64,000 nt of DNA, from the NCBI GenBank assembly GCA_903813345.2, contig CAIIXF020000012.1:25184184-25248183 (forward strand). Reading direction: 5' to 3'. Within the stretch, counting starts at the first letter, position 1. The number at the start of each line of letters is the position of its first letter. The position numbers and the translations under genes were made by a program. This document shows positions 669 to 50,274 of the stretch, piece by piece. Origin of the DNA: Owenia fusiformis (Eukaryota > Annelida > Polychaeta > Sabellida > Oweniidae). The notes under the pieces are model-generated. The model was given only the letters and a program-made list of their open reading frames with translations, ran no database searches and was not told the origin of the DNA.

Positions 669-2271
669 GTAAGAGCCATATATTGAAACGTCTCACAATT
701 CAACAAAAGACTAGGTAGTACCAGCGTGACGTACGAATAGTCAGGAAATTGACATTTCGTCTAGAGCGAAATGTAAATTTGAGTTTTATGACAAATTAGA
801 TACTCATAATCTCACGAATAGAATGACCATACAACGAGTCCTTCGAAGAGCAAATACAAAAATTATATCCCCACACGTTGCTCAAATAAGCAAACATCAT
901 ACTCCTACCAGCGTAATGTAAGACCGGTCCGAAAATTGAAATTTCGTCTAGAGCACAATGTAAATCAGAGCTTCGCGACAAATCCTACAAATTAAATACT
1001 CTTTATCTCATTAATATAATGACTAATCAACAAGTCCTTGGTCAAACTAATATAAAAATGTATCCTTAAAGATCTTGCCAGTTAGCAAATAACATGCTGC
1101 CACCAGCATTACGTACGACTGGTCTGAAAATTGACATTTCGTCTAGAGCAAAATGTAAATCAGAGCTTTATGACAAATTAGATACTAGTACTCATAATCT
1201 CACGAATAGAATGACCATACAACAAGTTCTTTGAAGAGCAAATGCAAAAATTATATCCTTACACGTTGCTCAAATAAGCAAACATCATGCTCCTACCAGC
1301 GTGACGTAAGACCGGTCCGAAAATTGACATTTCGTCTTGAGCGCAATGTAAATAGGAGCTTTGCGACAAATCCTACAAATTAGATTCTCTTTATCTCATG
1401 AATTAAATGCCCAATTAAAAAGTCCTTTGTAGGGCAAATGTAAAGATGTATCCTTAAACATCTCACTTATTAGCAAATATCCTGCTGACATTTCTTCAAG
1501 AGCGCAAACTGCCTCAGAGATTGATAAAAATTGGATATGAAATATATCACGAAGGGGGACATCAGATGTTAAATCTTTCGAAGAGCAAACGTAGCAACTT
1601 ATACTGAAACGTCTCTCTAATCAACAAAGAACGAGCTGGTATCAGCGTGCGGTACGACTAGTCAGAAAATTGACATTTCGTCTAGAGCGCAATGTAAATC
1701 AAAGCTTTATGTCGAATTACATACTCAATATCTCACGAATAGAATAACCACTCAACAAGAGCAAATGCAAAAATATATACTTCTATGTCTCTCAAACTAA
1801 CAGCCCATATGCTGCTAACTACAGGTACATGACGTAGGGCCAGTCCGAAAATAGTCATTTCGTCTAGAGCGCAATGTAAATCAAAGCTTTATGACAGATA
1901 AGATACGCAATATATTAATAGAAGGACCATTCAAAAAGTCCTTTGTAGAGCAAATGCAAAAATATATACTTTAACGTCTCCCAAACTAATAACCCACATG
2001 CTGCTACCAGCGTGACGTAAGACTGGTCCGAAAATTGACATTTCGTCTAGAGCGCAATGTAAATCAAAGCTTTATGACACATTACATACTCAATATCTCA
2101 CGAATAGAATGAGCACTCAACAAGTCCTTGGTAGAGCAAATGCAAAAATATAGACTTAAACGTCTCTCAAACTAACAACCCACATGCTGCAACCAGCGTG
2201 ACGTAAGACCGGTCCAAAAATGCAAAAATACTTTAAAGTCTCTCAAACTAACACCCAACATGCTGCTAACA
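669..2271 (-). repeat. Diverged satellite monomers, reverse orientation (left edge)
   Basis: Eight to nine degenerate monomers of the same family as the core array, all in reverse complement. The landmark GACATTTCGTCTAGAGCGC (reverse of GCGCTCTAGACGAAATGTC) recurs near 747, 927, 1130, 1320, 1490 (truncated), 1665, 1848 and 2030, at roughly 180-200 bp spacing. The divergence and the CTAGAGC variant match the diverged forward monomers at 39-43 kb better than the homogeneous core. Orientation flips at about 2,220-2,275. Confidence 0.9.
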
Positions 2272-3445
2272 ACATACGTAACGCTGGTGGCAGCATGATA
2301 TTTGTTATTTAGTGAGATGTTTCAGGATACATATTTACATTTGCCCTACCGAGGACTTGTTGATTGGTCATTCTATTCGTGAGATATTGAGTATCTAATT
2401 TGTCAAACTGGTACATGCAAGTCCTTTGCAATTTTGTGAGACGTTTGAGTATATATTTGGGAGTATGCTCTTGAATGGATTTAATGAATGATGTTCCCGT
2501 TCGTGATATATTTTATATCTAATTCGTCTTAAATCTATGATGCAGTTTGTGCTCTGGAGGAAATGTCAATTTTCGGACCAGTCGTACGTAACGCTGGTGG
2601 CAGCATGATATTTGTTATTTAGTGAGATGTTTCAGGATACATTTTTACATTTGCCCTACCGAGGACTTGTCGATTGGTCATGCTATTCGTGAGATATTGA
2701 GTATCTAATTTGTCATACAAGTCTGATTTACTTTGGGCTATGTACGGAATGTCAATTTTCTGAACAGCTGTACATCGCACTGGTAGCAGCGACATATTGT
2801 GAGACGTTTATGTATATATTTTTACGTTTGCCAAAGGAGGGATTTATCGATTGACTTCTCTGTTAGGGGGATATATAATATCCAATTCGTCTTAATCGCT
2901 TATGCAATTTGCGCTCTTGACGAAATGTCAATTTTCCAACCAGTCGTACGTCACACTGGTACATGCCAGTCCTTTGCAATTTTGTGAGACGTTTGAGTAT
3001 ATATTTTGAAGTATGCTCTTGAATGGATTTAATGAATGATGTTCCCGTTCGTGGTATATTTTATATCTAATTCGTCTTAAATCTATGATGCAGTTTGTGC
3101 TCTGGAGGAAATGTCAATTTTCGGACCAGTCGTACGTAACGCTGGTGGCAGCATGACTTTTGCTATTTAATGAGATGCTTCAAGATACATTTTTAGATTT
3201 GCCCTACCGAGGACTTGTTGATTGGTCATGCTATTCGTGAGATGTTGAGTATCTAATTTGTCATACAAGTCTAATTTACTATTGGGCTATGTACGAAATG
3301 TGAATTTTCGGACCAGCTGTACATCTCACTGGTAGCAGCGACTAGTTTGATATATTGTGAGACGTTTATGTATATATTTTTACGTTTGCCAAAGGAGGGA
3401 TGTATCGATTGACTTCTCTGTTAGGGGGATATATAATATCCAATT

Positions 3446-4557
3446 CGTTTTAAATACCTAATGCAATTTGCGCTCTTTACGAAATGTCAGTTTTCCGACC
3501 AGTCGTACGTCACACTGGTACATGCCAGTCCTTTGCAATTTTGTGAGACGTTTAAGTATATATTTTGGAGTATGCTCGTGAATGGATTTAATGAATGATG
3601 TTCCCGATCGTGATATATTTTATATCTAATTCGTCTTAAATCTATGATGCAGTTTGTGCTCTGGAGGAAATGTCAATTTTGGACCAGTCGTACGTTACGC
3701 TGGTGGCAGTATGATATTTGTTATTTAGTGAGATGTTTCAGGATACATTTTTACATTTGTTCTACCGAGGACTTGTTGATTGGTCATTCTACTCGTGAGA
3801 TATTGAGTATCTAATTCGCTATACAAGTCTGATTTACTTTGGGCTATGTACGGATCTCAATTTTCGGACCAGCTGTACATCGCACTAGTAGGAGGGACTA
3901 GTTTGATATATTGTGAGACGTTTATGTATATATTTTTACGTTTGCCAAAGGAGGGATGTATCGATTGACTTCTCTGTTAGGGGGATATATAATATCCAAT
4001 TCGTTTTAAATACCTAATGCAATTTGCGCTCTTTACGAAATGTCAGTTTTCCGACCAGTCGTACGTCACACTGGTACATGCCAGTCCTTTGCAATTTTGT
4101 GAGACGTTTAAGTATATATTTTGGAGTATGCTCGTGAATGGATTTAATGAATGATGTTCCCGATCGTGATATATTTTATATCTAATTCGTCTTAAATCTA
4201 TGATGCAGTTTGTGCTCTGGAGGAAATGTCAATTTTGGACCAGTCGTACGTTACGCTGGTGGCAGTATGATATTTGTTATTTAGTGAGATGTTTCAGGAT
4301 ACATTTTTACATTTGTTCTACCGAGGACTTGTTGATTGGTCATTCTACTCGTGAGATATTGAGTATCTAATTCGCTATACAAGTCTGATTTACTTTGGGA
4401 TATGTACGGATCTCAATTTTCGGACCAGCTGTACATCGCACTAGTAGGAGGGACTAGTTTGATATATTGTGAGACGTTTATGTATATATTTTTACGTTTG
4501 CCAAAGGAGGGATGTATCGATTGACTTCTCTGTTAGGGGGATATATAATATCCAATT
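3446..4557 (+). repeat. Tandem duplicate of one trimer (556-bp period)
   Basis: The stretches 3,446-4,001 and 4,002-4,557 are almost identical. Both carry the private variants CGTTTTAAATACC, GCTCTTTACGAAATG, CCCGATCGTG and GGATCTCAATTTTCGG. A single-base difference is visible (GGGCTATG against GGGATATG). The same variant trimer reappears near 24.2, 28.5 and 35.0 kb. Confidence 0.9.
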
Positions 4558-6775
4558 CGTCTTAAATCGCTTATGCAATTTGCGCTCTTGACAAAATGTC
4601 AATTTTCCGACCAGTCGTACGTCACGCTGGTACATGCCAGTCCTTTGCAATTTTGTGAGACGTTTAAGTAAATATTTTGAAGTATGCTCTTGAATGGATT
4701 TAATGAATGATGTCCCGTTCGTGATATATTTTATATCTAATTCGTCTTAAATCTATGATGCAGTTTGTGCTCTGGAGGAAATGTCAATTTTCGGACCAGT
4801 CGTACGTAATGCTGGTGGCAGCATGATATTTGTTATTTAGTTAGATGCTTCAGGATACATTTTTACATTTGCCCTACCGAGGACTTGTTGATTGGTCATT
4901 CTATTCGTGACATATTGAGTATCTAATTTGTCATACAAATCTGATTTACTTTGGGTTATGTACGAAATGTCAATTTTCGGACCAGCTGGACATCGCACTG
5001 GTAGCAGCGATTAGTTTGATATATTGTGACACGTTTATGTATATATTTTTACGTTTGCCAAAGGAGGGATGTATCGATTGACTTCTCTGTTAGGGGGATA
5101 TATAATATCCAATTCGTCTTAAATCGCTTATGCAATTTGCTCTCTTGACGAAATGTCAATTTTCAGACCAGTCGTACGTCACACTGGTACATGCCAGTCC
5201 TTTGCAATTTTGTGAGACGTTTAAGTATATATTTTGGAGTATGCTCGTGAATGGATTTAATGAATGATGTTCCCGATCGTGATATATTTTATATCTAATT
5301 CGTATTAAATCTATGATGCAGTTTGGGCTCTGGAGGAAATGTCAATTTTCGGACAAGTCGTACGTAACGCTGGTGGCAACATGATATTTGTTATTTAGTG
5401 AGATGTTTCAGGATACATTTTTACATTTGCCCTATCGAGGACTTGTTGATTGGTCATTCTATTCGTGAGATATTGAGTATCTAATTTGTCATACAAGTCT
5501 GATTTACTTTGGGCTATGTACGGAATGTCAATTTTCTGACCAGCTGTACATCGCACTGGTAGCAGCGACTAATTTGATATATTGTGAGACGTTTATGTAT
5601 ATATTTTTACGTTTGCCAAATGAGGGATGTATCGATTGACTTCTCTGTTAGGGGGATATGTAATATCCAATTCGTCTTAAATCGCTTATGCAATTTGCGC
5701 TCTTGACGAAATGTCAATTTTCCGACCAGTCGTAAGTCACACTGGTACATGCCAGTCCTTTGCAATTTTGTGAGACGTTTGAGTATATATTTTGAAGTAT
5801 GCTCTTGAATGGATTTAATGAATGATGTTCCCGTTCGTGATATATTTTATATCTAATTCGTCTTAAATCTATGATGCAGTTTGGGCACTGGAGGAAATAT
5901 CAATTTTCGGACCAGTCGTACGTAACGCTGGTGGCAGCATGATATTTGTTATTTAATGAGATGTTTCAGGATACATTTTTACATTTGCTCTACCGAGGAC
6001 TTGTTGATTGGTCATGCTATTCGTGAGATATTGAGTATCTAATTTGTCATACAAGTCTGATTTACTTTGGGCTATGCACGGAATGTCAATTTTCTGAACA
6101 GCTGTACATCGCACTGGTAGCAACGACATATTGTGAGAAGTTTATGTATATATTTTTACGTTTGCCAACGGAGGGATTTATCGATTGACTTCTCTGTTAG
6201 GGGGATATATAATATCCAATTCGTCTTAATCGCTAATGCAATTTGCGCTCTTGACAAAATGTCAATTTTCCAACCAGTCGTACGTCACACTGGTACATGC
6301 CAGTCCTTTGCAATTTTGTGAGACGTTTCAGTATATATTTTGAAGTATGCTCTTGAATGAATTTAATGAATGATGTTCCCGTTCGTGATATATTTTATAT
6401 CCAATTCGTCTTAAATCTATGATGCAGTTTGTGTTCTGGAGGAAACGTCAATTTTCGGACCAGTCGTACGTAACGCTGGTGGCAGCATGATATTTGCTAT
6501 TTAGTGAGATGTTTCGGGATACATTTTTACATTTGCTCTACCGAGGACTTGTTGATTGGTCATTCTACTCGTGAGATATTGAGTATCTAATTTGTCATAC
6601 AAGTCTGATTTACTTGGGGCCATGTACGGAATGTCAATTTTCGGACCAGCTGTACATCGCACTGGTAGCAGCGACTAGTTTGATATATTGTGAGACGTTA
6701 ATGTATATAATTTTACGTTTGCTAATTGAGGGATGTATCGATTGACTTCTCTGTTAGGGGGATATATAATATCCT
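4556..6775 (+). repeat. 2.2-kb satellite block, copy 1 (partner at +4,034)
   Basis: Matches 8,590-10,809 at a constant offset of 4,034. Shared private variants include GTAAATATTTTGA, TGATGTCCCGTTCG, GTGAGAAGTTTATG and GCTAATTGAGGG. The match ends near 6,775 (CTTTTCGTC here, CAATTCGTC in the partner). Confidence 0.88.
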
Positions 6776-8589
6776 TTTCGTCTTAAATCTCTTATGCAAT
6801 TTGCGCTCTTGACGAAATGTCAATTTTCCGACCAGTCGTACATCACACTGGTACATGCCAGTCCTTTGCAATTTTTGAGACGTTTCAGTATATATTTTGG
6901 AGTATGCTCTTGAATGGATTTATTGAATGATTTTCCCGTTCGTGATATATTTTATATCTAATTCGTCTTAAATCTATGATGCAGTTTGTGCTCTGGAGGA
7001 AACGTCAATTTTCGGACCAGTCGTACGTTACGCTGGTGGCAGTATGATATTTGTTATTTAGTGAGATGTTTCAGGATACATTTTTACATTTGCCCTACCG
7101 AGGACTTGTTGATTGGTCATTTTATTCGTGAGATATTGAGTATCTAATTTGTCATACAAGTTTGATTTACTTTGGGCTATGTACGGAATGTCAATTTTCG
7201 GACCAGCTGTACATCGCACTGGTAGCAGTGACTAGTTTGATATATTGTGAGACGTTTATGTATATATTTTTACGTTTGTCAAATAAGGGATGTATCGATT
7301 GACTTCTCTGTTAGGGGGATATATAATATCCAATTCGTCTTAAATACCTAATGCAATTTGCGCTCTTGACGAAATGACAATTTTCCGACCAGTCGTACGT
7401 CACACTGGTACATGCCAGTCCTTTGCAATTTTGTGAGGCGTTTAAGTATATATTTTGGAGTGTGCTCTTGTATGGATTTATTGAATGATGTTCCCGTTCG
7501 TGATATATTTTATATCTAATTCGTCTTAAGTCTTTGATGCAGTTAGTGCTCTGGAGGAAATGTCAATTTCAGACCAGTCGTACGTAACGCTGGTGGCAGC
7601 ATGATATTTGTTATTTAGTGAGATGTTTCAGGATACATTTTTACATTTGCCCTACCGAGAACTTGTTGGTTATTCTATTCGTGAGATATTGAGTATCTAA
7701 TTTTTCGGACCAGCTGTACATCGCACTGGTAGCCGTGACTAGTTTGATATATTGTGAGACGTTTATGTATATATTTTTACGTTTGCCAAAGGAGGGATGT
7801 ATCGATTGACTTCTCTGTTAGGGGGATAAAGAATATCCAATTCGTCTTAAATCGCTTATATGCAATTTGCGCTCTTGACGAAATGTCAATTTTCCAACCA
7901 GTCGTACGTCACACTGGTACATGCCAGTCCTTTGCAATTTTGTGAGACGTTTCAGTATATACTTTGGAGTATGCTCTTGAATGGAATTAATGAATGATGT
8001 TCCCGTTCGTGATATATTTTATATCTAATTCGTCTTAAATCTATGATGCAGTTTGTGCTCTGGAGGAAATGTCAATTTTCGGACCAGTCGTACGTAACGC
8101 TGGTGGCAGCATGATATTTGTTATTTAGTGAGATGTTTCAGAATACTTTCTTTTACATTTGCCCTACCGAGGACTTGTTGATTGGTCATTCTGTTCGTGA
8201 GATATTGAGTATCTAATTTGTCATACAAGTCTGATTTACTTTGGGCTATGTACGGAATGTCAATTTTCGGACCAGCTGTACATCGCACTGGTAGCAGTGA
8301 CTAGTTTGATATATTGTGAGACGTTTATGTATATATTTTTACGTTTGTCAAATAAGGGATGTATCGATTGACTTCTCTGTTAGGGGGATATATAATATCC
8401 AATTCGTCTTAAATACCCAATGCAATTTTGCACTCTTGACGAAATGTCAATTTTCCGACCAGTCATACGTCACACTGGTACATGCCAGTCCTTTGCAATT
8501 TTGTGAGACGTTTGAGTATATATTTTGAAGTATGCTCCTGAATGGATTTAATGAATGATGTTCCCGTTCGTGATATATTTTATATCCAA

Positions 8590-10809
8590 TTCGTCTTAAA
8601 TCGCTTATGCAATTTGCGCTCTTGACAAAATGTCAATTTTCCGACCAGTCGTACGTCACGCTGGTACATGTCAGTCCTTTGCAATTTTGTGAGACGTTTA
8701 AGTAAATATTTTGAAGTATGCTCTTGAATGGATTTAATGAATGATGTCCCGTTCGTGATATATTTTATATCTAATTCGTCTTAAATCTATGATGCAGTTT
8801 GTGCTCTGGAGGAAATGTCAATTTTCGGACCAGTCGTACGTAATGCTGGTGGCAGCATGATATTTGTTATTTAGTTAGATGCTTCAGGATACATTTTTCC
8901 ATTTGCCCTACCGAGGACTTGTTGATTGGTCATTCTATTCGTGACATATTGAGTATCTAATTTGTCATACAAATCTGATTTACTTTGGGTTATGTACGAA
9001 ATGTCAATTTTCGGACCAGCTGGACATCGCACTGGTAGCAGCGATTAGTTTGATATATTGTGAGACGTTTATGTATATATTTTTACGTTTGCCAAAGGAG
9101 GGATGTATCGATTGACTTCTCTGTTAGGGGGATATATAATATCCAATTCGTCTTAAATCGCTTATGCAATTTGCTCTCTTGACGAAATGTCAATTTTCAG
9201 ACCAGTCGTACGTCACACTGGTACATGCCAGTCCTTTGCAATTTTGTGAGACGTTTAAGTATATACTTTGGAGTATGCTCGTGAATGGATTTAATGAATG
9301 ATGTTCCCGATCGTGATATATTTTATATCTAATTCGTATTAAATCTATGATGCAGTTTGTGCTCTGGAGGAAATGTCAATTTTCGGACAAGTCGTACGTA
9401 ACGCTGGTGGCAGCATGATATTTGTTATTTAGTGAGATGTTTCAGGATACATTTTTACATTTGCCCTATAGAGGACTTGTTGATCGGTCATTCTATTCGT
9501 GAGATATTGAGTAACTAATTTGTCATACAAGTCTGATTTACTTTGGGCTATGTACGGAATGTCAATTTTCGGACCAGCTGTACATCGCACTGGTAGCAGC
9601 GACTAATTTGATATAATGTGAGACGTTTATGTATATATTTATACGTTTGCCAAATGAGGGATGTATCGATTGACTTCTCTGTTAGGGGGATATGTAATAT
9701 CCAATTCGTCTTAAATCGCTTATGCAATTTGCGCTCTTGACGAAATGTCAATTTTCCGACCAGTCGTAAGTCACACTGGTACATGCCAGTCCTTTGCAAT
9801 TTTGTGAGACGTTTAAGTATATATTTTGGAGTATGCTCGTGAATGGATTTAATGAATGATGTTCCCGTTCGTGATATATTTTATATCTAATTCGTCTTAA
9901 ATCTATGATGCAGTTTGGGCACTGGAGGAAATATCAATTTTCGGACCAGTCGTACGTAACGCTGGTGGCAGCATGATATTTGTTATTTAATGAGATGTTT
10001 CAGGATACATTTTTACATTTGCTCTACCGAGGACTTGTTGATTGGTCATGCTATTCGTGAGATATTGAGTATCTAATTTGTCATACAAGTCTGATTTACT
10101 TTGGGCTATGCACGGAATGTCAATTTTCTGAACAGCTGTACATCGCACTGGTAGCAACGACATATTGTGAGAAGTTTATGTATATATTTTTACGTTTGCC
10201 AACGGAGGGATTTATCGATTGACTTCTCTGTTAGGGGGATATATAATATCCAATTCGTCTTAATCGCTTATGCAATTTGCGCTCTTGACAAAATGTTAAT
10301 TTTCCAACCAGTCGTACGTCACACTGGTACATGCCAGTCCTTTGCAATTTTGTGAGACGTTTCAGTATATATTTTGAAGTATGCTCTTGAATGAATTTAA
10401 TGAATGATGTTCCCGTTCGTGATATATTTTATATCTAATTCGTCTTAAATCTATGATGCAGTTTGTGTTCTGGAGGAAACGTCAATTTTCGGACCAGTCG
10501 TACGTAACGCTGGTGGCAGCATGATATTTGCTATTTAGTGAGATGTTTCGGGATACATTTTTACATTTGCTCTACCGAGGACTTGTTGATTGGTCATTCT
10601 ACTCGTGAGATATTGAGTATCTAATTTGTCATACAAGTCTGATTTACTTGGGGCCATGTACGGAATGTCAATTTTCGGACCAGCTGTACATCGCACTGGT
10701 AGCAGCGACTAGTTTGATATATTGTGAGACGTTTATGTATATAATTTTACGTTTGCTAATTGAGGGATGTATCGATTGACTTCTCTGTTAGGGGGATATA
10801 TAATATCCA
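8590..10809 (+). repeat. 2.2-kb satellite block, copy 2
   Basis: Copy of 4,556-6,775. Its left boundary is an out-of-register join near 8,586: a C monomer tail (CGTTCGTGATATATTTTATATC) runs into a B tail (CAATTCGTCTTAAATCGC), so C is followed directly by another C and the A-B-C rhythm is broken. Confidence 0.86.
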
Positions 10810-12940: not shown

Positions 12941-13679
12941 ACTACTGTGATATATTGTGAGACGTTTACGTATATATTTTAACGTTTGCCAAAGGAGGGA
13001 TGTATCGATTGACTTCTCTGTTAGGGGGATATATATAACATCCAATTCGTCTTAAATCGCTTATGCAATTTGCGCTCTTGACGAAATGTCAATTTTCCGA
13101 CCAGTCGTACGTCACACTGGTACATGCCAGTCCTTTGCAATTTTGTGAGACGTTTAAGTATATATTTTGGAGTATGCTCTTGAATGGATTTAATGAATGA
13201 TGTTCCCGTTCGTGATATATTTTATATCTAATTCGTCTTAAATCTATGATGCAGTTTGTGCTCTGGAGGAAATGTCAATTTTCGGACCAGTCGTACGTTA
13301 CGCTGGTGGCAGTATGATATTTGTTATTTAGTTTGATATTTCAGGATACATTTTTACATTTGCCCTACCGAAGACTTGTTGATTGGTCATTCTATTCGTG
13401 AGATATTGAGTATCTAATTTGTCATACAAGTCTGATTTACTTTGGGCTATGTAGGGAATGTCAATTTTCGGTCCAGCTGTACATCGCACTGGTAGCAACG
13501 ACTAGTTTGATATATTGTGAGACGTTTATGTATATGTTTTTACGTTTGCCAAAGGAGGGATGTATCGATTGACTTCACTGTTAGGGGGATATATAATATC
13601 CAATTCGTCTTAAATCGCTTATGCAATTTGCGCTCTTGACAAAATGTCAATTTTCCGACCAGTCGTACGTCACACTGGT

Positions 13680-32696: not shown

Positions 32697-33089
32697 CTAG
32701 TTTGATATATTGTGAGACGTTTATGTATATATTTTTACGTTTGCCAAAGGAGGGATGTATCGATTGACTTCTCTGTTAGGGGGATATATAATATCCAATT
32801 CGTCTTAAATCGCTTATGCAATTTGCGCTCTTGACAAAATGTCAATTTTCCGACCAGTCGTACGTCACACTGGTACTTGCAAGTCCTTTGAAATTTTGTG
32901 AGACGTTTGAGTATATATTTTGTAGTATGCTCTTAAATGGATTTAATGAATGATGTTCCCGTTCGTGATATATTTTATATCTAATTCGTCTTAAATCTAT
33001 GATGCAGTTTGTGCTCTGGAGGAAATGTCAATTTTCGGACCAGTCGTACGTAATGCTGGTGGCAGCATGATATTTGTTATTTAGTTAGA
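32304..33089 (+). repeat. 393-bp tandem duplication spanning a hybrid junction
   Basis: The segment 32,304-32,696 is repeated at 32,697-33,089. Both carry GTACTTGCAAGTCC, TTTGTAGTATGCTC and GTAATGCTGG. The join GTTAGA|CTAG is the same one that separates the 4,299-bp copies, so the same breakpoint was reused or copied. Confidence 0.88.
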
Positions 33090-36000
33090 TGCTTCAGGAT
33101 ACATTTTTACATTTGCCCTACCGAGGACTTGTTGATTGGTCATTCAATTCGTGACATATTGAGTATCTAATTTATCATACAAATCTGATTTACTTTGGGT
33201 TATGTACGAAATGTCAATTTTCGGACCAGCTGTACATCGCACTGGTAGCAGCGACTAGTTTGATATATTGTGAGACGTTTATGTATATATTTTTACGTTT
33301 GCCAAAGGAGGGATGTATCGATTGACTTCTCTGTTAGGGGGATATATAATATCCAATTCGTCTTAAATCGCTTATGCAATTCGCTCTCTTGACGAAATGT
33401 CAATTTTCCGACCAGTCGTACGTCACACTGGTACATGCCAGTCCTTTGCAATTTTGTGAGACGTTTAAGTATATATTTTGGAGTATGCTCGTGAATGGAT
33501 TTAATGAATGATGTTCCCGATCGTGATATATTTTATATCTTATTCGTATTAAATCTATGATGCAGTTTGTGCTCTGGAGAAAATGTCAATTTTCGGACAA
33601 GTCGTACGTAACGCTGGTGGCAGCATGATATTTGTTATTTAGTGAGATGTTTCAGGATACATTTTTACATTTGCCCTATCGAGGACTTGTTGATTGGCCA
33701 TTCTATTCGTGAGATATTGAGTATCTAATTTGTCATACAAGTCTGATTTACTAAGTTGGGCTATGTACGGAATGTCAATTTTCTGAACAGCTGTACATCG
33801 CACTGGTAGCAGCGACATATTGTAAGACGTTTATGTATATATTATTACGTTTGCCAAAGGAGGGATTTATCGATTGACTTCTCTGTTAGGGGGATATATA
33901 ATATCCAATTCGTCTTAATCGCTTATGCAATTTGCGCTCTTGACGAAATATCAATTTTCCAACCAGTCGTACGTCACACTGGTACATGCCAGTCCTTTGC
34001 AATTTTGTGAGACGTTTCAGTATATATTTTGAAGTATGCTCTTGAATGAATTTAATGAATGATGTTCCCGTTCGTGATATATTTTATTTCTAATTCGTCT
34101 TAAATCTATGATGCAGTTTGTGCTCTGGAGGAAACGTCAATTTTCGGACCAGTCGTACGTAACGCTGGTGGCAGCATGATATTTGCTATTTAGTGAGATG
34201 TTTCGGGATACATTTTTACATTTGCTCTACCGAGGACTTGTTGATTGGTCATTCTGCTCGTGAGATATTGAGTATCTAATTTGTCATACAAGTCTGATTT
34301 ACTTGGGGCCATGTACGGAATGTCAATTTTCGGACCAGCTGTACATCGCACTGGTAGCAGCGACTAGTTTGATATATTGTGAGACGTTTATGTATATATT
34401 TTTACGTTTGCCAAAGGATTGATGTATCGATTGACTTCTCTGTTAGGGGGATATATAATATCCAATTCGTCTTAAATCGCTTATGCAATTTGCGCTCTTG
34501 ACGAAATGTCAATTTTCCGACCAGTCGTACGTCACACTAGTACATGCCAGTCCTTTGCAATTTTGTGAGACGTTTAAGTATATATTTTGAAGTATGCTCT
34601 TGAATGGATTTAATGAATGATGTTCCCGTTCGTGATATATTTTATATCTAATTCGTCTTAAATCTATGATGCAGTTTGTGCTATGGAGGAAACGTCAATT
34701 TTTGGAGCAGTCGTACGTTACGCTGGTGGCAGTATGATATTTGTTATTTAGTGAGATGTTTCAGGATACATTTTTACATTTGCCCTACCGAGGACTTGTT
34801 GATTGGTCATTTTATTCGTGAGATATTGAGTATCTAATTTGTCATACAAGTCTGATTTACTTTGGGCTATGTACGGAATGTCAATTTTCGGACCAGCTGT
34901 ACATCGCACTGGTAGCAGCGACTAGTTTGATATATTGTGAGACGTTTATGTATATATTTTTACGTTTGCCAAATGAGGGATGTATCGATTGACTTCTCTG
35001 TTAGGGGGATATATAATATCCAATTCGTTTTAAATACCTAATGCAATTTGCGCTCTTTACGAAATGACAATTTTCCGACCAGTCGTACGTCTCACTGGTA
35101 CATGCCAGTCCTTTCCAATTTTGTGAGGCGTTTAAGTATATATTTTGGAGTATGCTCTTGTATGGATTTATTGAATGATGTTCCCGTTCGTGATATATTT
35201 TATATCTAATTCGTCTTAAATCTTTGATGCAGTTAGTGCTCTGGAGGAAATGTCAATTTCAGACCAGTCGTACATAACGCTGGTGGCAGCATGATATTTG
35301 TTATTTAGTGAGATGTTTCAGGATAGATTTTTACATTTGCTCTACCGAGCACTTGTTGGTTATTCTATTCGTGAGATATTGAGTATCTAATTTTTTGGAC
35401 CAGCTGTACATCGCACTGGTAGCAGCGACTAGTTTGATATATTGTGAGACGTTGATGTATATATTTTTACGTTTGCCAAAGGAGGGATGTATCGATTGAC
35501 TTCTCTATTAGGGGGATATATAATATCCAATTCGTCTTAAATCGCTTACGCAATTTGCGCTCTTGACGAAATGTCAATTTTCCGACCAGTCGTGCGTAAC
35601 GCTGGTGGCAGCATGATATTTGTTATTTTGTGAGTTGTTTCAGGGTACATTTTTACATTTGCCCTACCGAGGACTTGTTGATTGGTCATTCTATTCGTGA
35701 GATATAAGTATCTAATTTGTCATACAAGTATGATTTACTTTTTGGCTATGTACGGAATGTCAATTTTCGGACCAGCTGTACATCGCACTGGTAGCAGTGA
35801 CTAGTTTGATATATTGTGAGACGTTTACGTATATATTTTTATGTTTGCCAAAGGAGGGATGTATCGATTGACTTCTCTCATAGGGGGATATATAATATCC
35901 AATTCGTCTTAAATCGCTTATGCAATTTGCTCTCTTGACGAAATGTCAATTTTCCGACCAGTCGTACGTCACACTGGTACATGCCAGTCCTTTGCAATTT

Positions 36001-36360
36001 TGTGAGACGTTTAAGTATATATTTTGGAGTATGCTCGTGAATGGATTTAATGAATGATGTTCCCGATCGTGATATATTTTATCTAATTCGTCTTAAATCT
36101 ATGATGCAGTTAGTGCTCTGGAGAAAATGTCAATTTTCGGACAAGTCGTACGTAACGCTGGTGGCAGCATGATATTTGTTATTTAGTGAGATGTTTCAGG
36201 ATACATTTTTACATTTGCCCTATCGAGGACTTGTTGATTGGTCATTCTTTTCGTGAGATATTGAGTATCTAATTTGTCATACAAGTCTGATTTACTTTGG
36301 GCTATGTACGGAATGTCAATTTTCGGACCAGCTGTACATCGCACTGGTAGCAGCGACTAA

Positions 36361-38730
36361 TTTGATATATTGTGAGACGTTTATGTATATATTTTTACGT
36401 TTGCCAAAGGAGGGATGTATCGATTGACTACTCTGTTAGGGGGATATATATTATCCAATTCGTCTTAAATCGCTTATGCAATTTGCGCTCTTGACGAAAT
36501 GTCAATTTTCCGACCAGTCGTACGTCACACTGGTACATGTCAGTCCTTTGCAATTTTGTGAGACGTTTAAGTATATATTTTAGAGTATGCTCTTGAATGG
36601 ATTTAATGAATGATGTGTCCGTTCGTGATATATTCTATATCTAATTCGTCTTAAATCTATGATGCAGTTTGTGCTCTGGAGGAAATGTCAATTTCGGACC
36701 AGTCGTACGTAACGCTGATGGCAGCATGACATTTGCTATTTAGTGTGATGTTTTGGGATACATTTTTACATTTGCCCTACCGAGGACTTGTTGATTGGTG
36801 ATTCTATTCTGGAGATATTGAGTATCCAATTCGTCATACACGTCTGATTTACTTTTGGCTATGTACGGAATGTCAATTTTCGGACCAGCTGTACATCGCA
36901 CTTGTAGCAGCGACTAGTTTGATATATTGTGAGACGTTTATGTATATATTTTTACGTTTGCCAAAGGAGGGATGTATCGATTGACTACTCTGTTAGGGGG
37001 ATATATATTATCCAATTCGTCTTAAATCGCTTATGCAATTTGCGCTCTTGACGAAATGTCAGTTTTCCGACCAGTCGTAGGTCTCACTGGTACAGGCCAG
37101 TGCTTTGCAATTTTGTGAGACGTTTTGTGAGATATTTTGGAGAATGCTCTTGAATGGATTTAATAAATGGTGTTCCTGTTCGTGATATATTTTATATCTA
37201 ATTCGTCTTAAATCTATGATGCAGTTTGTGCTATGGAGGAAATGTCAATTTTCGGACCAGTCGTACGTAACGCTGGTGGCAGCATGATATTTGTTATTTT
37301 GTGAGTTGTTTCAGGATACATTTTTACATTTGCCCTACCGAGGACTTGTTGATTGGTCATTCTATTCGTGAGATATAAGTATCTAATTTGTCATACAAGT
37401 ATGATTTACTTTTGGTCTATGTACGGAATGTCAATTTTCGGACCAGCTGTACATCGCACTGGTAGCAGTGACTAGTTTGATATATTGTGAGACGTTTACG
37501 TATATATTTTTACGTTTGCCAAAGGAGGGATGTATCGATTGACTTCTCTGTTAGGGGGATATATAATATCCAATTCGTCTTAAATCGCTTATGCAATTTG
37601 CTCTCTTGACGAAATGTCAATTTTCCGACCAGTCGTACGTCACACTGGTACATGCCAGTCCTTTGCAATTTTGTGAGACGTTTAAGTATATATTTTGGAG
37701 TATGCTCGTGAATGGATTTAATGAATGATGTTCCCGATCGTGATATATTTTATATCTAATTCGTCTTAAATCTATGATGCAGTTTGTGCTCTGGAGAAAA
37801 TGTCAATTTTCGGACAAGTCGTACGTAACGCTGGTGGCAGCATGATATTTGTTATTTAGTGAGATGTTTCAGGATACATTTTTACATTTGCCCTATCGAG
37901 GACTTGTTGATTGGTCATTCTATTCGTGAGATATTGAGTATCTAATTTGTCATACAAGTCTGATTTACTTTGGGCTATGTACGGAATGTCAATTTTCGGA
38001 CCAGCTGTACATCGCACTGGTAGCAGCGACTAATTTGATATATTGTGAGGCGGTTATGTATATATTTTTACGTTTGCCAAATGAGGGATGTATCGATTGA
38101 CTTCTCTGTTAGGGGGATATGTAATATCCAATTCGTCTTAAATCGCTTATGCAATTTGCGCTCTTGACGAAATGTCAATTTTCCGACCAGTCGTAAGTCA
38201 CACTGGTACATGCCAGTCCTTTGCAATTTTGTGAGACGTTTGAGTGTATATTTTGAAGTATGCTCTTGAATGGATTTAATGAATGATGTTCCCGTTCGTG
38301 ATATATTTTATATCTAATTCGTCTTAAATCTATGATGCAGTTTGGGCACTGGAGGAAATGTCAATTTTCGGAGCAGTCGTACGTAACGCTGGTAGCAGCA
38401 TGGCATTTGCTATTTGGTGAGATGTTTTAGGATACATTTTTACATTTGTTCTTCCGAGGACTTGTTGATTGGTCATTCTACTCGTGAGATATTGAGTATC
38501 TAATTTGTCATACAAGTCTGATTTACTTGGGGCCATGTACGGAATGTCAATTTTCGGACCAGCTGTACATCGCACTGGTAGCAGCGACTAGTTTGATATA
38601 TTGTGAGACGTTTATGTATATATTTTTACGTTTGCCAAAGGATTGATGTATCGATTGACTTTTCTCTTAGGGGGATATGTAATATCCAATTCGTCTTAAA
38701 TCGCTTATGCAATTTGCGCTCTTGACGAAA
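36361..38730 (+). repeat. Partial third copy of the 4.3-kb block
   Basis: Matches 24,661-27,032 at an offset of 11,700, dropping to 11,698 after a 2-base difference (GTACGTAACGC against GTACGTATAACGC). The 81-codon minus-strand frame at 26,632 recurs at 38,330. Similarity breaks down near 38,730. Confidence 0.87.
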
Positions 38731-38917
38731 TGTCAATTTTCCGACCAGTCGTACGTCACACTGGTACATGCCAGTCCTTTGCAATTTTGTGAGACGTTTA
38801 AGTATATATTTTGGAGTATGCTCGTGAATGGATTTAATGAATGATGTTCCCGATCGTGATATATTTTATATCTAATTCGTCTTAAATCTATGATGCAGTT
38901 TGTGCTCTGGAGGAAAT

Positions 38918-41900
38918 GTCAATTGTGTCTTACGTCAACCTGGTAGCAGCATGTGGGTTGTTTGTTTGAGAGACGTTATAGTTACTATTTTTGCATTTGC
39001 TCAATCAAGGACTTATTGCGTGGTCATATGTCAATTTTCTGACCAGTCGTACGTCACACTGGTACTAGCTAGTCCTTTGGTGATTTGTTAGACCTTCCAA
39101 TATATGTTTCTACGAGTATTCTACGAAGGATTTAATGACTGTTTTTTTGTTCATGAAATATTTTATGTTCAATTTTTCAGAAATCGCTAAAAATACAGTT
39201 TGCTGCATGCTATTTGCTAATTAATGATATTTTGGTGGATACCTTTTTACATTTACTCTACCTAGGACTTGTTGGTTAGTCATTCTATTCGAGAGGTATG
39301 GAATATCTAATTTGTGGTGGGGCTGTCAAAAGTGCTGACAAAATGTCAAATTTCGGAGCAGTCTCACGTCAAGCTAGTAGCAGCATTTGGATTGTTAGTT
39401 TGAGAGACGCTAAAGTATATATTTTTGTATGTGCTATACCAAGGACTTGTTGATGGGTCATTCTATTCGTGAGATATTGAGTATCTTATTTGTCATAAAG
39501 TTTTGATGTACATTGCGCTCGAGACGAAATGTAAATTTTCTGACCAGTCGTACTTCACGCTGGTACTAGTTCGTCATTTGCTGATTTATGAGACTTTTCT
39601 GAATATGTTTCTACGTTTGCATTAAGAAAGAATAAATGACTTATGTTTCCTTCGTGAAATATTTTATATCTAATTTGTCTTAAACCTCTGATGCAGTTTG
39701 CGCTCTAAAAGAAATGTCAATTTTCGGACCAGTCGTACGTCACACTGCTATTAGCTAGTCTTTTGCTTTTTTGTGAGACGTTTATGTATTTATTTTGAAG
39801 TATGCTCATCAATGGATTTAATGACTGATGTTTCCCTTTGTGATATATTTTATATCTAATTTGTCTTCAATCTCTGATGCACTTCGCGCTCTAGAAGAAA
39901 TGTCAATTTTCGGACCATTCGTACGTAACGCTGGTCGCAGCAGAATATTTGGTAATTCAAGAGATGTTTGAAGATACATTTTTACATTTGCCCTAACAAA
40001 GACTTGTCGATTGGTCATTCTATTCGTGGGATATAGAGTATTTAATTTATAGTATTTGTCGCAAAGCTCTGATTTACATTGCGCTCGAGACGAAATGTCA
40101 ATTTTCGGACCGGTCTTACGTCACGCTGGTAGCAGCATGTGGGTTGTTAGTTTGAGAGACGTTACAGGATATATTTTTGCATTTGTACTACCAAGGACTT
40201 GTTGAGTGGTCATTCTATTCTTGAGATATTGAGTATCTTATTTGTCATGAAGCTTTGATTTACATTGCGCTCTAGACGAAATGTCAATTTTCGGACCGAT
40301 CTTACGTCACGCTGGTAGCAGCACGGGGGTTGTTAGTTTGGGAGACGTAAAAGTATATATTTTTGATTTTGCACTTCCAAGGACTTGTTGGGTGGTCATT
40401 CTATTCGTGCGATATTGAGTATATAATTTGTCATAAAACTTTGATTAAAATTGCGCTCTAGACGAAATGTCACTTTTTGACTGGTCTTACGTCACGCTGG
40501 TAGGAGTATGATGTTTGCTTATTTGAGCAACGTGTAAGGATATAATTTTTGCATTTGCTCCTCCAAGGACTCGTTTTATGGTCATTCTATTCGTAAGATT
40601 ATGAGTATCTAATTTGTCATAAAGTTCTGATTTACATTTCACTGTAGACGAAATGTCAATCTTCTGACCAGTCGTACGTCACGCTGGTACTAGCTAGTCC
40701 TTTGCTGATTTGTGAAACGTTTCAATATATGTTTCTACGTTTGCTCTAGGAAGAATTTAATGACAGGTTTTTCTGGGCGTGAAATATGTTATATCTATTT
40801 TGTCTTAAATCTCTGATACAGTTTACGATCTAGACGAAATGTCAATTTTCGGACCAGTCGTACGTAACGTTGGTGGCAGCAAGCTATTTGTTAATTAATG
40901 AGATTTTGGAGAATATATTTTAACATTGCCTTTACCAAGGACTTGTTGATTTGTCATTCTATTCGGGAGATATTAAATATCTAATTTGTCGAAAAGCTCT
41001 GATTAACGATGCCCTCTAGACAAAATGTCAAGTCTTCGGACCAGTCTTACGTCATGCTTGTATCAGCATGTGGGTTGTTAGTTTGAGAGACGTTAAAGTA
41101 TATATTTTTGCATTTGCACTACCAAGAACTTGTTGAGTGGTCATTATATTCGTGACATATTGAGTAACTTATTTGTCATAAAGCTTTGATTTACATTGCG
41201 CTCTAGACGAAATGTCAATTTTCGGACCGGTCTTACGTCATGCTGGTAGGAGTATGATGTTTGGTTATTTGAGCAACGTTTAAGGATATGTTTCAACGTT
41301 TGCTCTACGAAAGATTGAATGACTTATGTTTCCGTTCGTGAAATATTTTATATCTAATTTGGTTTAAATCGCAAATGCAGTTTGTGCTCTAAAAGAAATG
41401 TCAATTTTCGGACCAGTCGTACGCCACACTGCTACTAGCTAGTCCTTTATTATTTTGTTAGACGTTTAAGTATTTGTTGTAAAGTATGCTCATCAATGGA
41501 TTTAATGACTGAAGTTCCCATTCGTGATATATTTTATATCTAATTTGTCTTCAATCTCTGATGCAGTTTGCGCTCTAGAAGAAATGTCAATTTTCGAACC
41601 AGTCGTACTTAACGCTGGTGGAAGCGGGATATTTGCTAATTAGTGAGATGTTTAAGGATACATTTTTACATTTGCCCTATCTAGGACTTGTTGATTGGTA
41701 ATTCTATTCGTGAGATATAGAATATCTAATTTGTAGGATTTGTCACAAAGCTCTGATTTACATTGCACTCTCTAATTTTAGGACCGGTCTTACGTCACGC
41801 TTGTAGAAGAATGATGTTTGCTTATTTGAGCAACGTGTGTGGATATATTTGTGCAATTGTTCTACTTATGTTTCTACGTTTTCTCTTCAAGGGATTTAAT

Positions 41901-43325
41901 GACTGATGTGCCTGGTCGTGAAAGATTTTATATCTAATTTGTCTTAAATCTCTAATACAGTTTGCGCTCTAGGCGAAATGTCAATTTCGGACCAGTCAAT
42001 CATAACGCTGGTAGTAGCATGTTATTTGCTAATTGGTGAGATCTTTATCAATACATTTTTATATAAGCTCTATAAAGGACTTGTTGATTAGTCATTCTAT
42101 TCGAGAGATATAGAATATCTAATTTGTCGCTAAGCTCTGATTTACATTGCGCTCTAGACGTAATGTCAATTTTCGGACCGGTCTTACGTCACGCTTGTAG
42201 AAGAATGATGTTTGCTTATTTGAGCAACGTATGAGGATATATTTTTGCAATTGCTCTACCTATGTTTCTACGTTTTCTCTACAAGGGATTTAATGACTGA
42301 GTGCCTGGTCGTGAAATTTTTTATATCTAAGTTGTCTTAAATCTCTAATACAGTTTGCGCTCTTGGCGAAATGTCAATTTTCGGACCAGTCAATCAAAAC
42401 GCTAGTAGCAGCATGTTATTTGCTAATTGGTGAGATCTTTATCAATACATTTTTATATAAGCTCTATAAAGGACTTGTTGATTAGTCATTCTATTCGAGA
42501 GATATAGAATATCTAATTTGTCGCTAAGCTCTGATTTACATTGCGCTCTAGACGTAATGTCAATTTTCGGACCGGTCTTACGTCACGCTTGTAGAAGAAT
42601 GATGTTTGCTTATTTGAGCAACGTATGAGGATATATTTTTGCAATTGCTCTACCTATGTTTCTACGTTTTCTCTACAAGGGATTTAATGACTGATGTGCC
42701 TGGTCGTGAAAATTTTGATATCTAAGTTGTCTTAAATCTCACAGTTTGCGCTCTAGACGAAATGTCAATTTTCGGACCAGTCAATCATAACGCTAGTAGC
42801 AGCATGTTATTTGCTAATTGGTGAGATCTTTATCAATACAATTTTATATAAGCTCTATAAAGGACTTGTTGATTAGTCATTCTATTCGAGAGATATAGAA
42901 TATCTATTTTGTCGCAAAGCTCTGATTTACATTGCACTCTAGACGTAATGTCAATTTTCGGACCGGTCTAACGTCACGCTGGTAACCGTATATATAGGTT
43001 GTTAATTTAAGAGATGTAAATGGATATATTTTTGCATATGTTACGTTAAGGACTTGTTGATCAGTAGTCATTCTATTCATGAGATAATGAATATCTAATT
43101 TGACATAAAGCTTTGATTTACATTGCGATCTGGACGAAATGTCAATTTTCTGACTAGTCGTAGCTCACACTAATACCAGCTCGTCCTTTGCTGATTTTTG
43201 AGACGTTTCAGTATATAAGTCGCTGATTCAGTTTGATAATATAAATCTTCAGACCGATCGTACGTCACGATGGTACCAGCATGTTGTTTGCTATTTTGTG
43301 AGACGTTTAAAAATATATTTTTAAA
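38918..43325 (+). repeat. Diverged satellite monomers, forward orientation (right edge)
   Basis: About 23 degenerate monomers at roughly 185-bp spacing. ATGTCAATTTTC-like starts are near 39,345, 39,530, 39,717, 39,899, 40,096, 40,278, 40,467, 40,650, 40,836 and onward. Here the GCGCTCTAGACGAAATGTC form dominates, and the core reads GACCGGTCTTACGTCACGC rather than GACCAGTCGTACGTAACGC. The type rhythm is much weaker than in the core. This edge shares the variants of the reversed left edge. Confidence 0.92.
41782..42960 (+). repeat. Local 394-bp repeat, three copies, within the right edge
   Basis: GACCGGTCTTACGTCACGC-type starts lie at 41,782, 42,176, 42,570 and 42,961 (spacings 394, 394, 391). 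Each unit contains a truncated fusion monomer in which GCTCTACC runs straight into TATGTTTCTACG, so an edge-specific higher-order unit formed independently of the core trimer. Confidence 0.87.
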
Positions 43326-44067
43326 GGATCCGTTACCCCATGTACCTAAAGGTGCCCCCAAAGGTTTCATTGAATATAACATGGAAATAGTTACTTTTAT
43401 AAAGTATGAACACATCCAAAACAAAATTAGGTCATAGGGATTAAAACTAAGGTCATTCAGTGCATTTAAGTTTGACTATGCAAATCATTCTAAATATCAT
43501 ATTGTTAGGGGTATGCTAGTCTTCACTCATGACTATTTTAAGTATATTGACCATTCAATCAATCAATATATTAAAACATCATTAAGGTAGGACACAAAGG
43601 GCAACATATTGAAAACACAAATCATAAAACAACCCCTAAAATGTAATACATCTATGAATCTGAATCTTGAATCTCAGCAAAAGTATCAAATTAGTTGGTA
43701 TGCAGTAGGTTTAACCTAGGATATTCAATTTAGAGGACATATTAAACATCATTATCAAAGATAGGCCACAACATATTGACATATTGAAAACACAAAACCT
43801 AGGTATTCAACTCAAATATTAAAAATCTAGTTGTGACTTTCCAATATATGATGTATATATTTGGCATTTTCAAAGAATAATTCAATTGTAGCTAAAGGTA
43901 TAAAGTCAAATGGTTGCTTTTTAAAATTGAAAAGGTGCATGTAGGAGAGTTTTTTCGTCAGTTTGAAACCCATTGTTTTGCTATAAAACAAGTGAAGGTA
44001 CATGTATTTTAATCTATCCGTTGTATAACATATAATTATTGTGAAGTAAAATATTTTAGTTCGACTT

Positions 44068-44900
44068 AGGATGAGAACTATCTTACAAGCAGTGTCCCTT
44101 TAATGGCTAAATGGATATTGATTCCGTCTTTCAGCAATATATCATCTTTTGGGACAAGCATCACAAAAAATTGACCATTTTATTTCTTTTGGTGAGAACT
44201 ACCTTCCAAGCAGTGTCCCTTTAAACAGCTACATGGATATTGATTTAGTCCCTCAGCAATATATCATCTTCAGGGGTAGGCATTTGTATGAAGAATCAAA
44301 AATAGATTGACCCATTAGTTGAGAACTACCTTACACGCAGGGTCTCTTTAAATGGGTAAATGGATATTGATTCAGTTCCTCAGCAATATATCACATTCAT
44401 GGGCAGGGATGACTGTTCGATCAAAAGTATATTGACCCTTTGATTCTTTGTTAAAAATAGTTTAGTGTTCATTAGGATGAGAACTATCTTACAAGCAATG
44501 TCCCTTTAAATGTCTGAATGGATAATGACTCAGTCCCCCTGCAATATATCATATTCAGGGGCATGCATGAATGATCGATCAAAGATAGATTGGCCTATTT
44601 GTTTCTTTGGGTGAGAACTGCCTTACAAGGAGTGTCCCTTTAATGGCTAGATGGATATTAATTCAGTGTCTCTTCAACATATCATCTCAAGAGATAGCCA
44701 TAACTGATGAACCAAAAGAAGATTGACCCATTTGATTCTTTGTTTAAAACATTTTAGTGTTCATTAGCATGAGAACTACCTTACAAACAGTGTCCCTTTA
44801 TTGACTAAATGGATATCAATATTCAGTCCCTCTGCAACATATCCTCTTCAGAGACATGCATGACTGATAAATCAAAAAACAAATTGACCCATTTGATACT
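44068..44900. repeat. Internal tandem repeat of the inserted element (six degenerate copies)
   Basis: GAGAACTACCTTACAAGCAG followed by TGTCCCTTTAAATGG-like sequence recurs near 44,068, 44,190, 44,319, 44,477, 44,612 and 44,769, with spacing of about 120-160 bp. Each copy continues with ATGGATATTGATTCAGT, CAGCAATATATCATCTTC and ATTGACCCATTTGATTC. Confidence 0.85.
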
Positions 44901-44993
44901 TGTCTGATAGTTTGTTGCCTTGGTGTCTGGCAGATCCAATATGGCCTCCTTTTTTACACTAAATTTTTTGCTATACTTTCACATTGTATATCC

Positions 44994-45089
44994 TCCGCAG
45001 TCAGGACCCTCTCTCATTTCATGTTTGAACCATGCAATGATGTCAATACTAAACAATAAAGGTAAAATCAGAGGGGGTCTGACCTGCGG
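44994..45089. repeat. Hairpin inside the inserted element
   Basis: The arms CCGCAGTCAGGACCCTC (44,994-45,010) and GAGGGGGTCTGACCTGCGG (45,071-45,089) are imperfect reverse complements round a loop of about 60 bp. It could be a small nested MITE or a structured segment. Confidence 0.55.
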
Positions 45090-45520
45090 AAGCACCTCAA
45101 TCTGTCAGTGACTGTAGAAGGTCATCCATTCTTAAAAACAAGAACACAATAGGGTGCCTTTCAAAACAATAGGATTACAAAGTATCTATGCATGGTTGAT
45201 CTGCTTAGTGAAGGTTATTATGCTCAGACACAATGTCGTTTTATACTGATAAGTCAATTTAAGTGTATCTACAAAAATCGAGATTTTATTCAAGGTTTTG
45301 TGAAAATATGTGAAAATTACTCATTTTAAGAGTCAGAATGACATGTGTTAAGAGTCACTGTAAAAAACAACTTTTTACCATATTCTAAATATTATTTTTG
45401 TGATTTGTTGAAAATATACTTCTTAAAGATTCATATTATAGAAGAATAATCCTGGAATTCCAATTTACCCTTTTCGAAAAATTTCTAAGTCCTTATAGGT
45501 ACACTAATGGGTACGGATCC

Positions 45521-45770
45521 TTTGCTCTACCAAGGACTTGCTTATTGGTCTGTTTTTTCGTGAGATATTCAGTATCTTATTTGTCATGAAGCTCTGATTT
45601 ACTTCGCGCTCTCGAAGGAATGTCAATTTCCGGACCAGTTGTGCATCGCGCTGGTAGCAGCGACCAGGTTAATATTTTGTAAGACGTTCATGTATATATT
45701 TTTACGTTTGCCGTAAGATGGATGTGTTGATTGACTTTTCAGTTAAGGAGATATAAAATATCCACTTTGT
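45521..45770 (+). repeat. Last satellite monomers, right of the insertion
   Basis: Resumes with TTTGCTCTACCAAGGACTTG (A/edge type), then a diverged B monomer: GGAATGTCAATTTCCGGACC, GTTGTGCATCGCGCTGG, TTTTTACGTTTGCCGTAAG, AAGGAGATATAAAATATCC. Similarity stops at about 45,770. This is the right limit of the satellite in the window. Confidence 0.85.
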
Positions 45771-50270: not shown

Positions 50271-50274
50271 ACAG

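What the first reader, a model, noticed from the sequence alone, without database searches (positions are those of the whole stretch)
669..45770. Centromere-like layered satellite: homogeneous core, diverged and partly inverted edges
The sequence shows a 36-kb core of near-identical 186-bp A-B-C trimers, flanked on the left by diverged monomers in reverse orientation and on the right by diverged forward monomers that share variants with the left edge. In alpha-satellite centromeres, homogenised higher-order arrays are bordered by older diverged layers. The same age gradient is visible here in a different, apparently invertebrate, family. The centromeric role is inferred from architecture alone.
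Basis: partly seen in the sequence, partly recalled or inferred. Interest (0 to 1): 0.85.

Follow-up and report, generated by a model that had tools for sequence, protein, structure and literature searches.

The report
Palindromic satellite domain shared by chromosomes
A block of young three-part repeats sits near the middle of a large, partly eroded mirror-image stretch of older repeats and ordinary DNA, a layout that recurs in whole or part on three chromosomes of what is probably a marine worm and that resembles a centromere without proving one.

Summary
Window 2273-38912 is a forward array of 186-bp monomers in A-B-C trimers (558 bp; 93-95% within a class, 66-71% between). Diverged reversed monomers lie left and diverged forward monomers right, sharing variants. 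Inside the core there is no age gradient: the change to the edges is a step. The finding is truncated. The reversed edge runs 6 kb beyond the window, and non-satellite DNA outside the array is mirrored too (window 48017-51576 against C12:25168184-25170680, inverted). The whole is an interrupted palindrome of about 68 kb. A second case, about 135 kb, lies on C11, and a matching arm end lies on C2. Every listed close match of the 186-bp family lies on 3 of 12 pseudochromosomes or on small contigs, within about 9, 8.5 and 1.3 Mb; listings are capped. The genome looks annelid and resembles Owenia fusiformis (inferred). I read it as pericentromeric, possibly centromeric, satellite DNA built by inverted duplication and later amplification near the centre. 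No kinetochore evidence exists. Several units lie on C12, and nine chromosomes show no close copies, so a universal centromere repeat is unlikely. The mirror layout recalls fission-yeast-type inverted-repeat centromeres as much as alpha satellite.

The parts
678..2289 (-). left diverged edge: 10 reversed monomer pieces; continues outside the window to C12:25178004 (35 more pieces)
2273..38912 (+). homogeneous core: A-B-C trimer higher-order repeat, 558 bp, monomers 186 bp
38913..43324 (+). right diverged edge, forward monomers sharing classes D, E, G, H, I with the left edge
43325..45519 (.). dispersed ~2.2-kb element with short inverted ends inserted into one monomer (model positions 89/90); not part of the satellite
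45520..45776 (+). last right-edge monomers beyond the insertion
48017..51576 (-). right outer arm: non-satellite DNA and outer tandem repeat, inverted copy of C12:25168184-25170680 left of the window (66-89% in pieces)

Best explanation
The window holds most of an interrupted palindromic satellite domain (about 68 kb, C12:25167115 to about 25235760) that belongs to the pericentromeric, possibly centromeric, heterochromatin of three chromosomes. Layers on the left, from outside in: outer ~244-bp tandem repeat, segment Y, segment X, 113-bp satellite S2, diverged 186-bp monomers, then the young A-B-C core; the right side repeats these layers inverted but without S2 and X. Shown: the order and inversion of the layers here, a second case on C11, a matching arm end on C2, and cores about as alike between C11 and C12 as within each. 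Inferred: an ancestral array with its flank was duplicated in inverted orientation; copies spread among three chromosomes; a 3-monomer block (4-monomer in one C12 block) then amplified near the centre, leaving older monomers and flanks on both sides. Also inferred: the DNA works as heterochromatin that may carry or border the kinetochore.
For: Mirror arms here: window 48017-51576 against C12:25168184-25170680, 10 inverted alignments, 0 direct, 0 in the reversed-not-complemented control. C11: left and right edges 90.2% over 3180 bp in mirrored register against about 79% in two of the three other listed registers (85.2% in the third); edge class order score 51 against 16 +- 3.1 in 1000 shuffles, 0 reaching it; Y at 7636277(+) and 7768357(-) on either side; flanks next to the array 98.7-100% over about 340 bp. 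Window locus: edges 85.5% over 1802 bp against 74.6-76.6% in the three other listed registers; order score 18 against 10.3, reached by 1 of 1000. S2 lies at the outer end of arms in one relative orientation in 8 of the 8 S2 places that have listed 186-bp matches on one side nearby (one search read). Core between C11 and C12 0.920-0.936, within 0.922-0.951. Confinement: 34 of 34 exact edge 36-mers on C2, C11, C12, C483; the 100 places listed of 314 at up to 3 mismatches and the 100 listed of 357 for the whole C monomer are on those plus C124, C265, C454. The dispersed insert, found on all 12 large contigs by the same tool, is the positive control.
Against: No CENH3, FISH or Hi-C data. C12 carries at least 8 copies of Y, 4 in each orientation, from 15.1 to 25.9 Mb, and arrays over 17.3-25.7 Mb; C2 has arrays over 9.9-19.0 Mb, so not every unit can be a centromere. 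Nine chromosomes show no close copies. The right arm here lacks S2 and X. For Y the mate across this array (80%) is no closer than copies at other loci (80-92%), so the inversion history is mixed. Of 9 array flanks compared, 6 share X, the window's right flank shares only Y, and the two C2 9.92-9.94-Mb flank pieces (1.4-1.6 kb) share nothing. On C483 both edges are reversed around a forward core, and in the C12 24.6-Mb block forward edges sit between reversed cores, so the clean mirror layout is not universal. A reversed edge match lies outside the left end, at C12:25129251, and short 186-bp pieces lie outside S2 at C12:25171008 and C11:8911029. S2 relatives (79-83%) also occur on C8 without listed 186-bp matches. 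CENP-B-box-like motifs are not enriched and one C monomer shows no unusual single-strand folding (z 0.14).
Confidence: 0.5

Rival explanations
1. A non-centromeric heterochromatic satellite domain: palindromic segmental duplications spread along and between three chromosomes, with no kinetochore role.
For: Several units on C12 and blocks on C2 over 8-9 Mb; no listed match on nine chromosomes; a different 146-bp satellite, often palindromic, occurs as two clusters each on C4, C9 and C10, so such arrays are not special to one place per chromosome.
Against: The listed matches are confined to one interval per chromosome rather than scattered, as expected of pericentromeres.
Confidence: 0.25
2. One reading: an alpha-satellite-like centromere in which a new higher-order array expanded inside an older one-way array and pushed old monomers aside.
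For: Young core with diverged flanks; array-specific HORs (trimer, or tetramer at C12 24.6 Mb); human chromosome 8 shows mirror layers, one with p and q sides 87-92% alike (PMC8099727, passages).
Against: The two sides are inverted and in mirror register and include non-satellite flanks, which needs an inverted duplication.
Confidence: 0.13
3. A giant foldback-like mobile element whose inverted ends carry tandem repeats and whose centre is the satellite.
For: Outer ends recur at several loci in a fixed orientation; 146-bp relatives of S2 form clusters with a forward left half and a reversed right half in 7 of 7 clusters where one search lists both orientations (3 further clusters list one orientation; that list is cut).
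Against: 68-135 kb; no terminus or target duplication was reached; the long close copies of Y are confined to three chromosomes in the list. A transposase in the arms was not searched for systematically.
Confidence: 0.05
4. Assembly artefact: palindromes from long reads that pass an adapter twice, or scaffolding errors.
For: The assembly looks like a Hi-C/3d-dna product with 50,000-base fragments; array and unit order on C12 and C2 may be wrong; the C2 11.64-Mb array abuts a 500-N gap and the C12 24.6-Mb block holds a 23-N run.
Against: Arms differ by 10-20%, more than read error would give; no N in the window, in 110 kb of C11 or in 16 kb left of the window; the arm sequence recurs on three chromosomes.
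Confidence: 0.05

Closest known systems
Human alpha-satellite centromeres (chromosome 8, PMC8099727)
   Same: Homogeneous HOR core flanked by diverged monomers; layers with mirror symmetry; flanks also hold other satellites and transposons (passages)
   Different: Here the sides are inverted copies that include non-satellite DNA; 36 kb instead of megabases; 186 bp instead of 171 bp; CENP-A not mapped; three chromosomes only in the listings
Fission-yeast-like inverted-repeat centromeres (Candida tropicalis, PMC4741521)
   Same: Core flanked by inverted repeats shared among chromosomes, arms holding tandem repeats, arms of one centromere more alike than across centromeres (passages); here true for the 186-bp edges on C11 and C12, not for Y on C12
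   Different: C. tropicalis has a non-repetitive core and one such unit at each of seven centromeres (passages); here the core is an HOR satellite and several units lie on one chromosome
Duplications shared by human acrocentric short arms (PMC10172130)
   Same: Long duplicated blocks shared by a subset of nonhomologous chromosomes (start of abstract in the listing; not opened)
   Different: Palindromic layout and satellite content not compared

Membership tests
Higher-order-repeat satellite DNA | Monomer classes repeat as multimers, alike between multimers and diverged within | tested here: met
   0.93-0.95 within a class, 0.66-0.71 between; 558-bp spacing
Alpha-satellite-like layered centromere | Homogeneous core bordered by older diverged monomers of the same family on both sides | tested here: met
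   a step, not a gradient
Alpha-satellite-like layered centromere | Flanks are remnants of one array pushed apart (model in PMC8099727, passages; one orientation is my inference from it) | tested here: not met
   flanks inverted and in mirror register with non-satellite DNA
Alpha-satellite-like layered centromere | CENP-A/CENH3 chromatin on the core | not testable with these tools
   needs ChIP-seq or CUT&RUN
Alpha-satellite-like layered centromere | Present at every chromosome's centromere | tested here: inconclusive
   all listed matches on C2, C11, C12 and small contigs; lists capped, diverged relatives elsewhere not excluded
CENP-B-box satellite | Motif NTTCGNNNNANNCGGGN (recalled) | tested here: not met
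   class consensuses match 6-7 of 9 bases at best, shuffles mean about 6.0-6.2; the one exact match in the window is at 26, outside the satellite
Inverted-repeat regional centromere | Core flanked by inverted repeats shared among centromeres | tested here: met
   layout only:
Inverted-repeat regional centromere | One unit per chromosome on all chromosomes | tested here: not met
   4 forward and 4 reversed Y copies on C12, no long Y copy listed on nine chromosomes
Inverted-repeat regional centromere | CENH3 on the central domain | not testable with these tools
   needs ChIP-seq or CUT&RUN
Foldback-like transposon | Defined inverted termini, target-site duplications, transposase or mobile relatives | tested here: inconclusive
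   outer ends recur but termini were not reached and no transposase search of the arms was made

The most novel reading that the evidence does not exclude
An annelid has regional centromeres built like those of fission yeast or Candida tropicalis: large inverted-repeat arms exchanged among chromosomes around a central domain, but with that centre filled by a young higher-order satellite, combining the two known animal and yeast layouts in one unit.
Probability: 0.15. Interest if true: 0.85.

Novelty: new variant of a known kind. Interest (0 to 1): 0.58.

Why it matters
Layered satellite arrays are known best from primates. A mirror-image version in a probable annelid, with non-satellite markers X and Y that tag each arm, would let one ask whether centromeric arrays renew from the middle, how inverted arms arise, and how a subset of nonhomologous chromosomes comes to share one satellite. 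It also gives probes for locating centromeres in a group for which two term searches returned no paper (Owenia fusiformis + chromosome-scale + satellite; annelid + centromere + satellite DNA + polychaete).

Tried and rejected
Shared flanks were first rejected because the flanks compared were too short and in mixed frames; longer flanks in one arm frame reversed that result. CENP-B box: no enrichment in the monomers; one exact motif at window 26 lies outside the satellite. Unusual DNA folding, one C monomer: no. Window searches: no Rfam match, no tRNA, no ORF of 90 aa or more with an ATG/GTG/TTG start in 1-45770. Two ORFs that look mariner-like to me by eye (recalled) gave no Pfam match; the other window ORFs were not scanned. 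COX1 was not found in the assembly. Naming the species by assembly size failed; the annelid linker family PF16915 has matches over its cut-off on C6, and 12 large contigs plus 50,000-base fragments fit the O. fusiformis description (505.8 Mb, 12 scaffolds, 3d-dna; PMC9977687, passages), but 498.26 Mb is not 505.8 Mb, so the name is an inference. A missing left edge at the C2 11.64-Mb array is uninformative, since a 500-N gap abuts it. A within-core age gradient was tested and not found. Caps: genome DNA searches score at most 40 candidates and pattern searches list 100 places; the list even left out 3 of the 34 exact places. Absence on C1 and C3-C10 therefore means absence from these lists.
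Full report
Where it is. The window is G000:C12:25184184-25248183 of a 498,259,871-base assembly in 525 contigs. Twelve contigs are 31.9-62.2 Mb; of nine others sampled, six are exactly 50,000 bases. The annelid erythrocruorin linker family PF16915 is found on C6 above its cut-off and in none of the tool's 14 control genomes; those that names are prokaryotes, so this control is weak for telling animal phyla apart. Size, 12 large scaffolds and fragment lengths resemble Owenia fusiformis (505.8 Mb, 12 scaffolds, 3d-dna; PMC9977687, passages). This identification is an inference.

The array. A 186-position monomer HMM finds 235 pieces in the window. The core at 2273-38912 is A-B-C in order; classes are 93-95% alike within and 66-71% between, with a dominant 558-bp spacing. 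Identity inside the core shows no trend with distance or along 4-kb bins. Variants are largely locus-specific: of alleles that reach 3 copies, 117 do so on C12 only, 129 on C11 only and 23 on both. So there is a step in age between core and edges, not a gradient inside the core.

The edges. Ten reversed pieces lie at 678-2289, and 35 more outside the window to C12:25178004. Twenty-six forward pieces lie to the right up to 45776. A 2195-bp element splits one right-edge monomer between model positions 89 and 90; 39 other candidates were scored, full-length ones at 92-94%, and together they fall on all 12 large contigs, which also shows that the search tool sees every large chromosome.

Mirror symmetry. 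On C11 I read a 110-kb stretch that holds a whole array. Its left edge is reversed and its right edge forward, with the same class order mirrored: score 51 against 16 +- 3.1, 0 of 1000 shuffles, and 90.2% identity over 3180 bp in the mirrored register. For the window the values are 85.5% over 1802 bp and 18 against 10.3, 1 of 1000. Between C11 and C12 the longer edge alignments are 77.9-81.2% over 2.2-2.7 kb, with stretches of about 1 kb reaching 85%. The C11 core contains both orientations, with a switch at 7675624; the C12 24.6-Mb core is mainly a tetramer with an extra A, and forward diverged blocks sit between its reversed cores.

Flanks. A first comparison found no shared flanks; it used short flanks. 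With longer flanks in one arm frame, 6 of 9 flanks compared share segment X (C12 left of the window, C12 24.65, C2 10.02, C11 8.91 and both sides of C11 7.65-7.77 Mb), the window's right flank shares only Y, and the two C2 9.92-9.94-Mb pieces share nothing. The order is a 113-bp satellite S2 (absent on C11 7.65-7.77 Mb and on the window's right side), then X, then Y, then an outer ~244-bp tandem repeat. In the window itself, 48017-51576 is the inverted counterpart of C12:25168184-25170680, with no direct match and no match in the reversed control. On C11, Y lies at 7636277 forward and 7768357 reverse, enclosing the array; on C2 it lies at 10025184 reverse beyond S2 and the forward edge. The first 1.1 kb of the Y query has 11 copies of at least about 590 bp among the 40 scored candidates of 2868: 8 on C12, 2 on C11, 1 on C2; short fragments of it also match on C4 (157 bp) and C2 (67 bp), while the rest of the query includes dispersed repeat found on many chromosomes. 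S2 and the edge stand in one relative orientation in 8 of 8 S2 places with a listed 186-bp match nearby; strong S2 matches at C11 8.52, C12 15.91, C12 25.89 and C8 23.64-23.67 Mb have none listed (with 24, 34, 49, 53, 65). Eight of the 11 Y copies have S2 or an edge within 60 kb on the array side in the same relative orientation; 3 have no neighbour listed. Against a tidy picture: Y across this array is 80% alike, no closer than Y elsewhere at 80-92%; C483 edges are both reversed; a reversed edge match lies outside the left end at C12:25129251; short 186-bp pieces lie outside S2.

Distribution. The exact C 31-mer occurs 671 times in the genome and 0 in the control. In the three long stretches read (window, C11, C12 24.6 Mb) there are 74 exact matches and 188 C pieces, so I infer roughly 1,700 C monomers and 1-1.3 Mb of core repeat. 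All listed places for the edge 36-mer (34 of 34 exact; 100 listed of 314) and the whole C monomer (100 listed of 357) are on C2, C11, C12 or small contigs: C2 9.9-19.0 Mb, C11 7.66-8.92 Mb, C12 17.3-25.7 Mb. Diverged relatives on other chromosomes are not excluded, because listings are capped.

Reading. The most likely account is a palindromic satellite domain in the pericentromeric heterochromatin of three chromosomes: an inverted duplication of an old array with its flank, spread among the three chromosomes, and a young HOR grown near the centre. Arms that differ by 10-20% argue against an adapter-read palindrome. Against a universal centromere: several units on C12 and nine chromosomes without listed close copies. 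Human chromosome 8 has mirror-symmetric layers (PMC8099727, passages); the passages I saw do not mention inverted flanks. Candida tropicalis has inverted repeats with tandem blocks around a core, arms more alike within than across centromeres, and an orientation that matters for function (PMC4741521, passages). The present layout shares parts of both.

Literature limits. Searches on 186-bp HOR centromere terms, Owenia with satellite or centromere, and annelid centromere satellites returned 3, 0, 1, 3 and 0 papers; of these I opened passages of one (PMC12153100) and saw the others only as listings. Nothing seen describes this family. Subscription journals were not searched.

Noticed in passing
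window 43325-45519: Dispersed ~2.2-kb element with AAGGATCCGT-like ends in inverted orientation and an internal ~292-bp tandem repeat; full-length copies at 92-94% on C4, C7, C9, C10.
   Followed up: partly
L048 (C9:25793700-25803699) and C3:32.66, C4:19.04 and 25.78, C9:18.42, C10:30.06, C11:13.35 Mb: A 146-bp satellite related to S2 forms clusters of 4-10 kb whose left half is forward and right half reversed, in 7 of 7 clusters where one search lists both orientations; 3 more clusters list one orientation only.
   Followed up: partly
L042-L047 (C12:24596001-24656000): Core is mainly a 744-bp A-A-B-C tetramer instead of a trimer, with forward diverged blocks between reversed cores.
   Followed up: partly
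L039:2131-9438 (C11, inside the C11 palindrome): Four neighbouring long ORFs on one strand (378-860 aa); three have Pfam matches: GDSL lipase (below cut-off), DUF6589 (above), TCR/CXC (below). An unclassified, perhaps mobile, element.
   Followed up: partly
L050:5011-5592 (C12:25173194-25173775): A ~585-bp element with many copies at 97-99% on most large chromosomes, apparently very young.
   Followed up: no
window 54882-55486: GC-rich 19-bp minisatellite, 32 copies, 94% match, open in several frames.
   Followed up: no
window 59057-59230 and 61109-61280: Two 16-bp minisatellites that look like inverted copies of each other about 2 kb apart, enclosing ORFs that look transposase-like to me but have no Pfam match.
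   Followed up: no
window 46718-47618 and L009 (C12:25990000-25991000): The window's right flank matches a stretch 0.8 Mb away on C12 in pieces at 75-95%, apparently a dispersed repeat.
   Followed up: no
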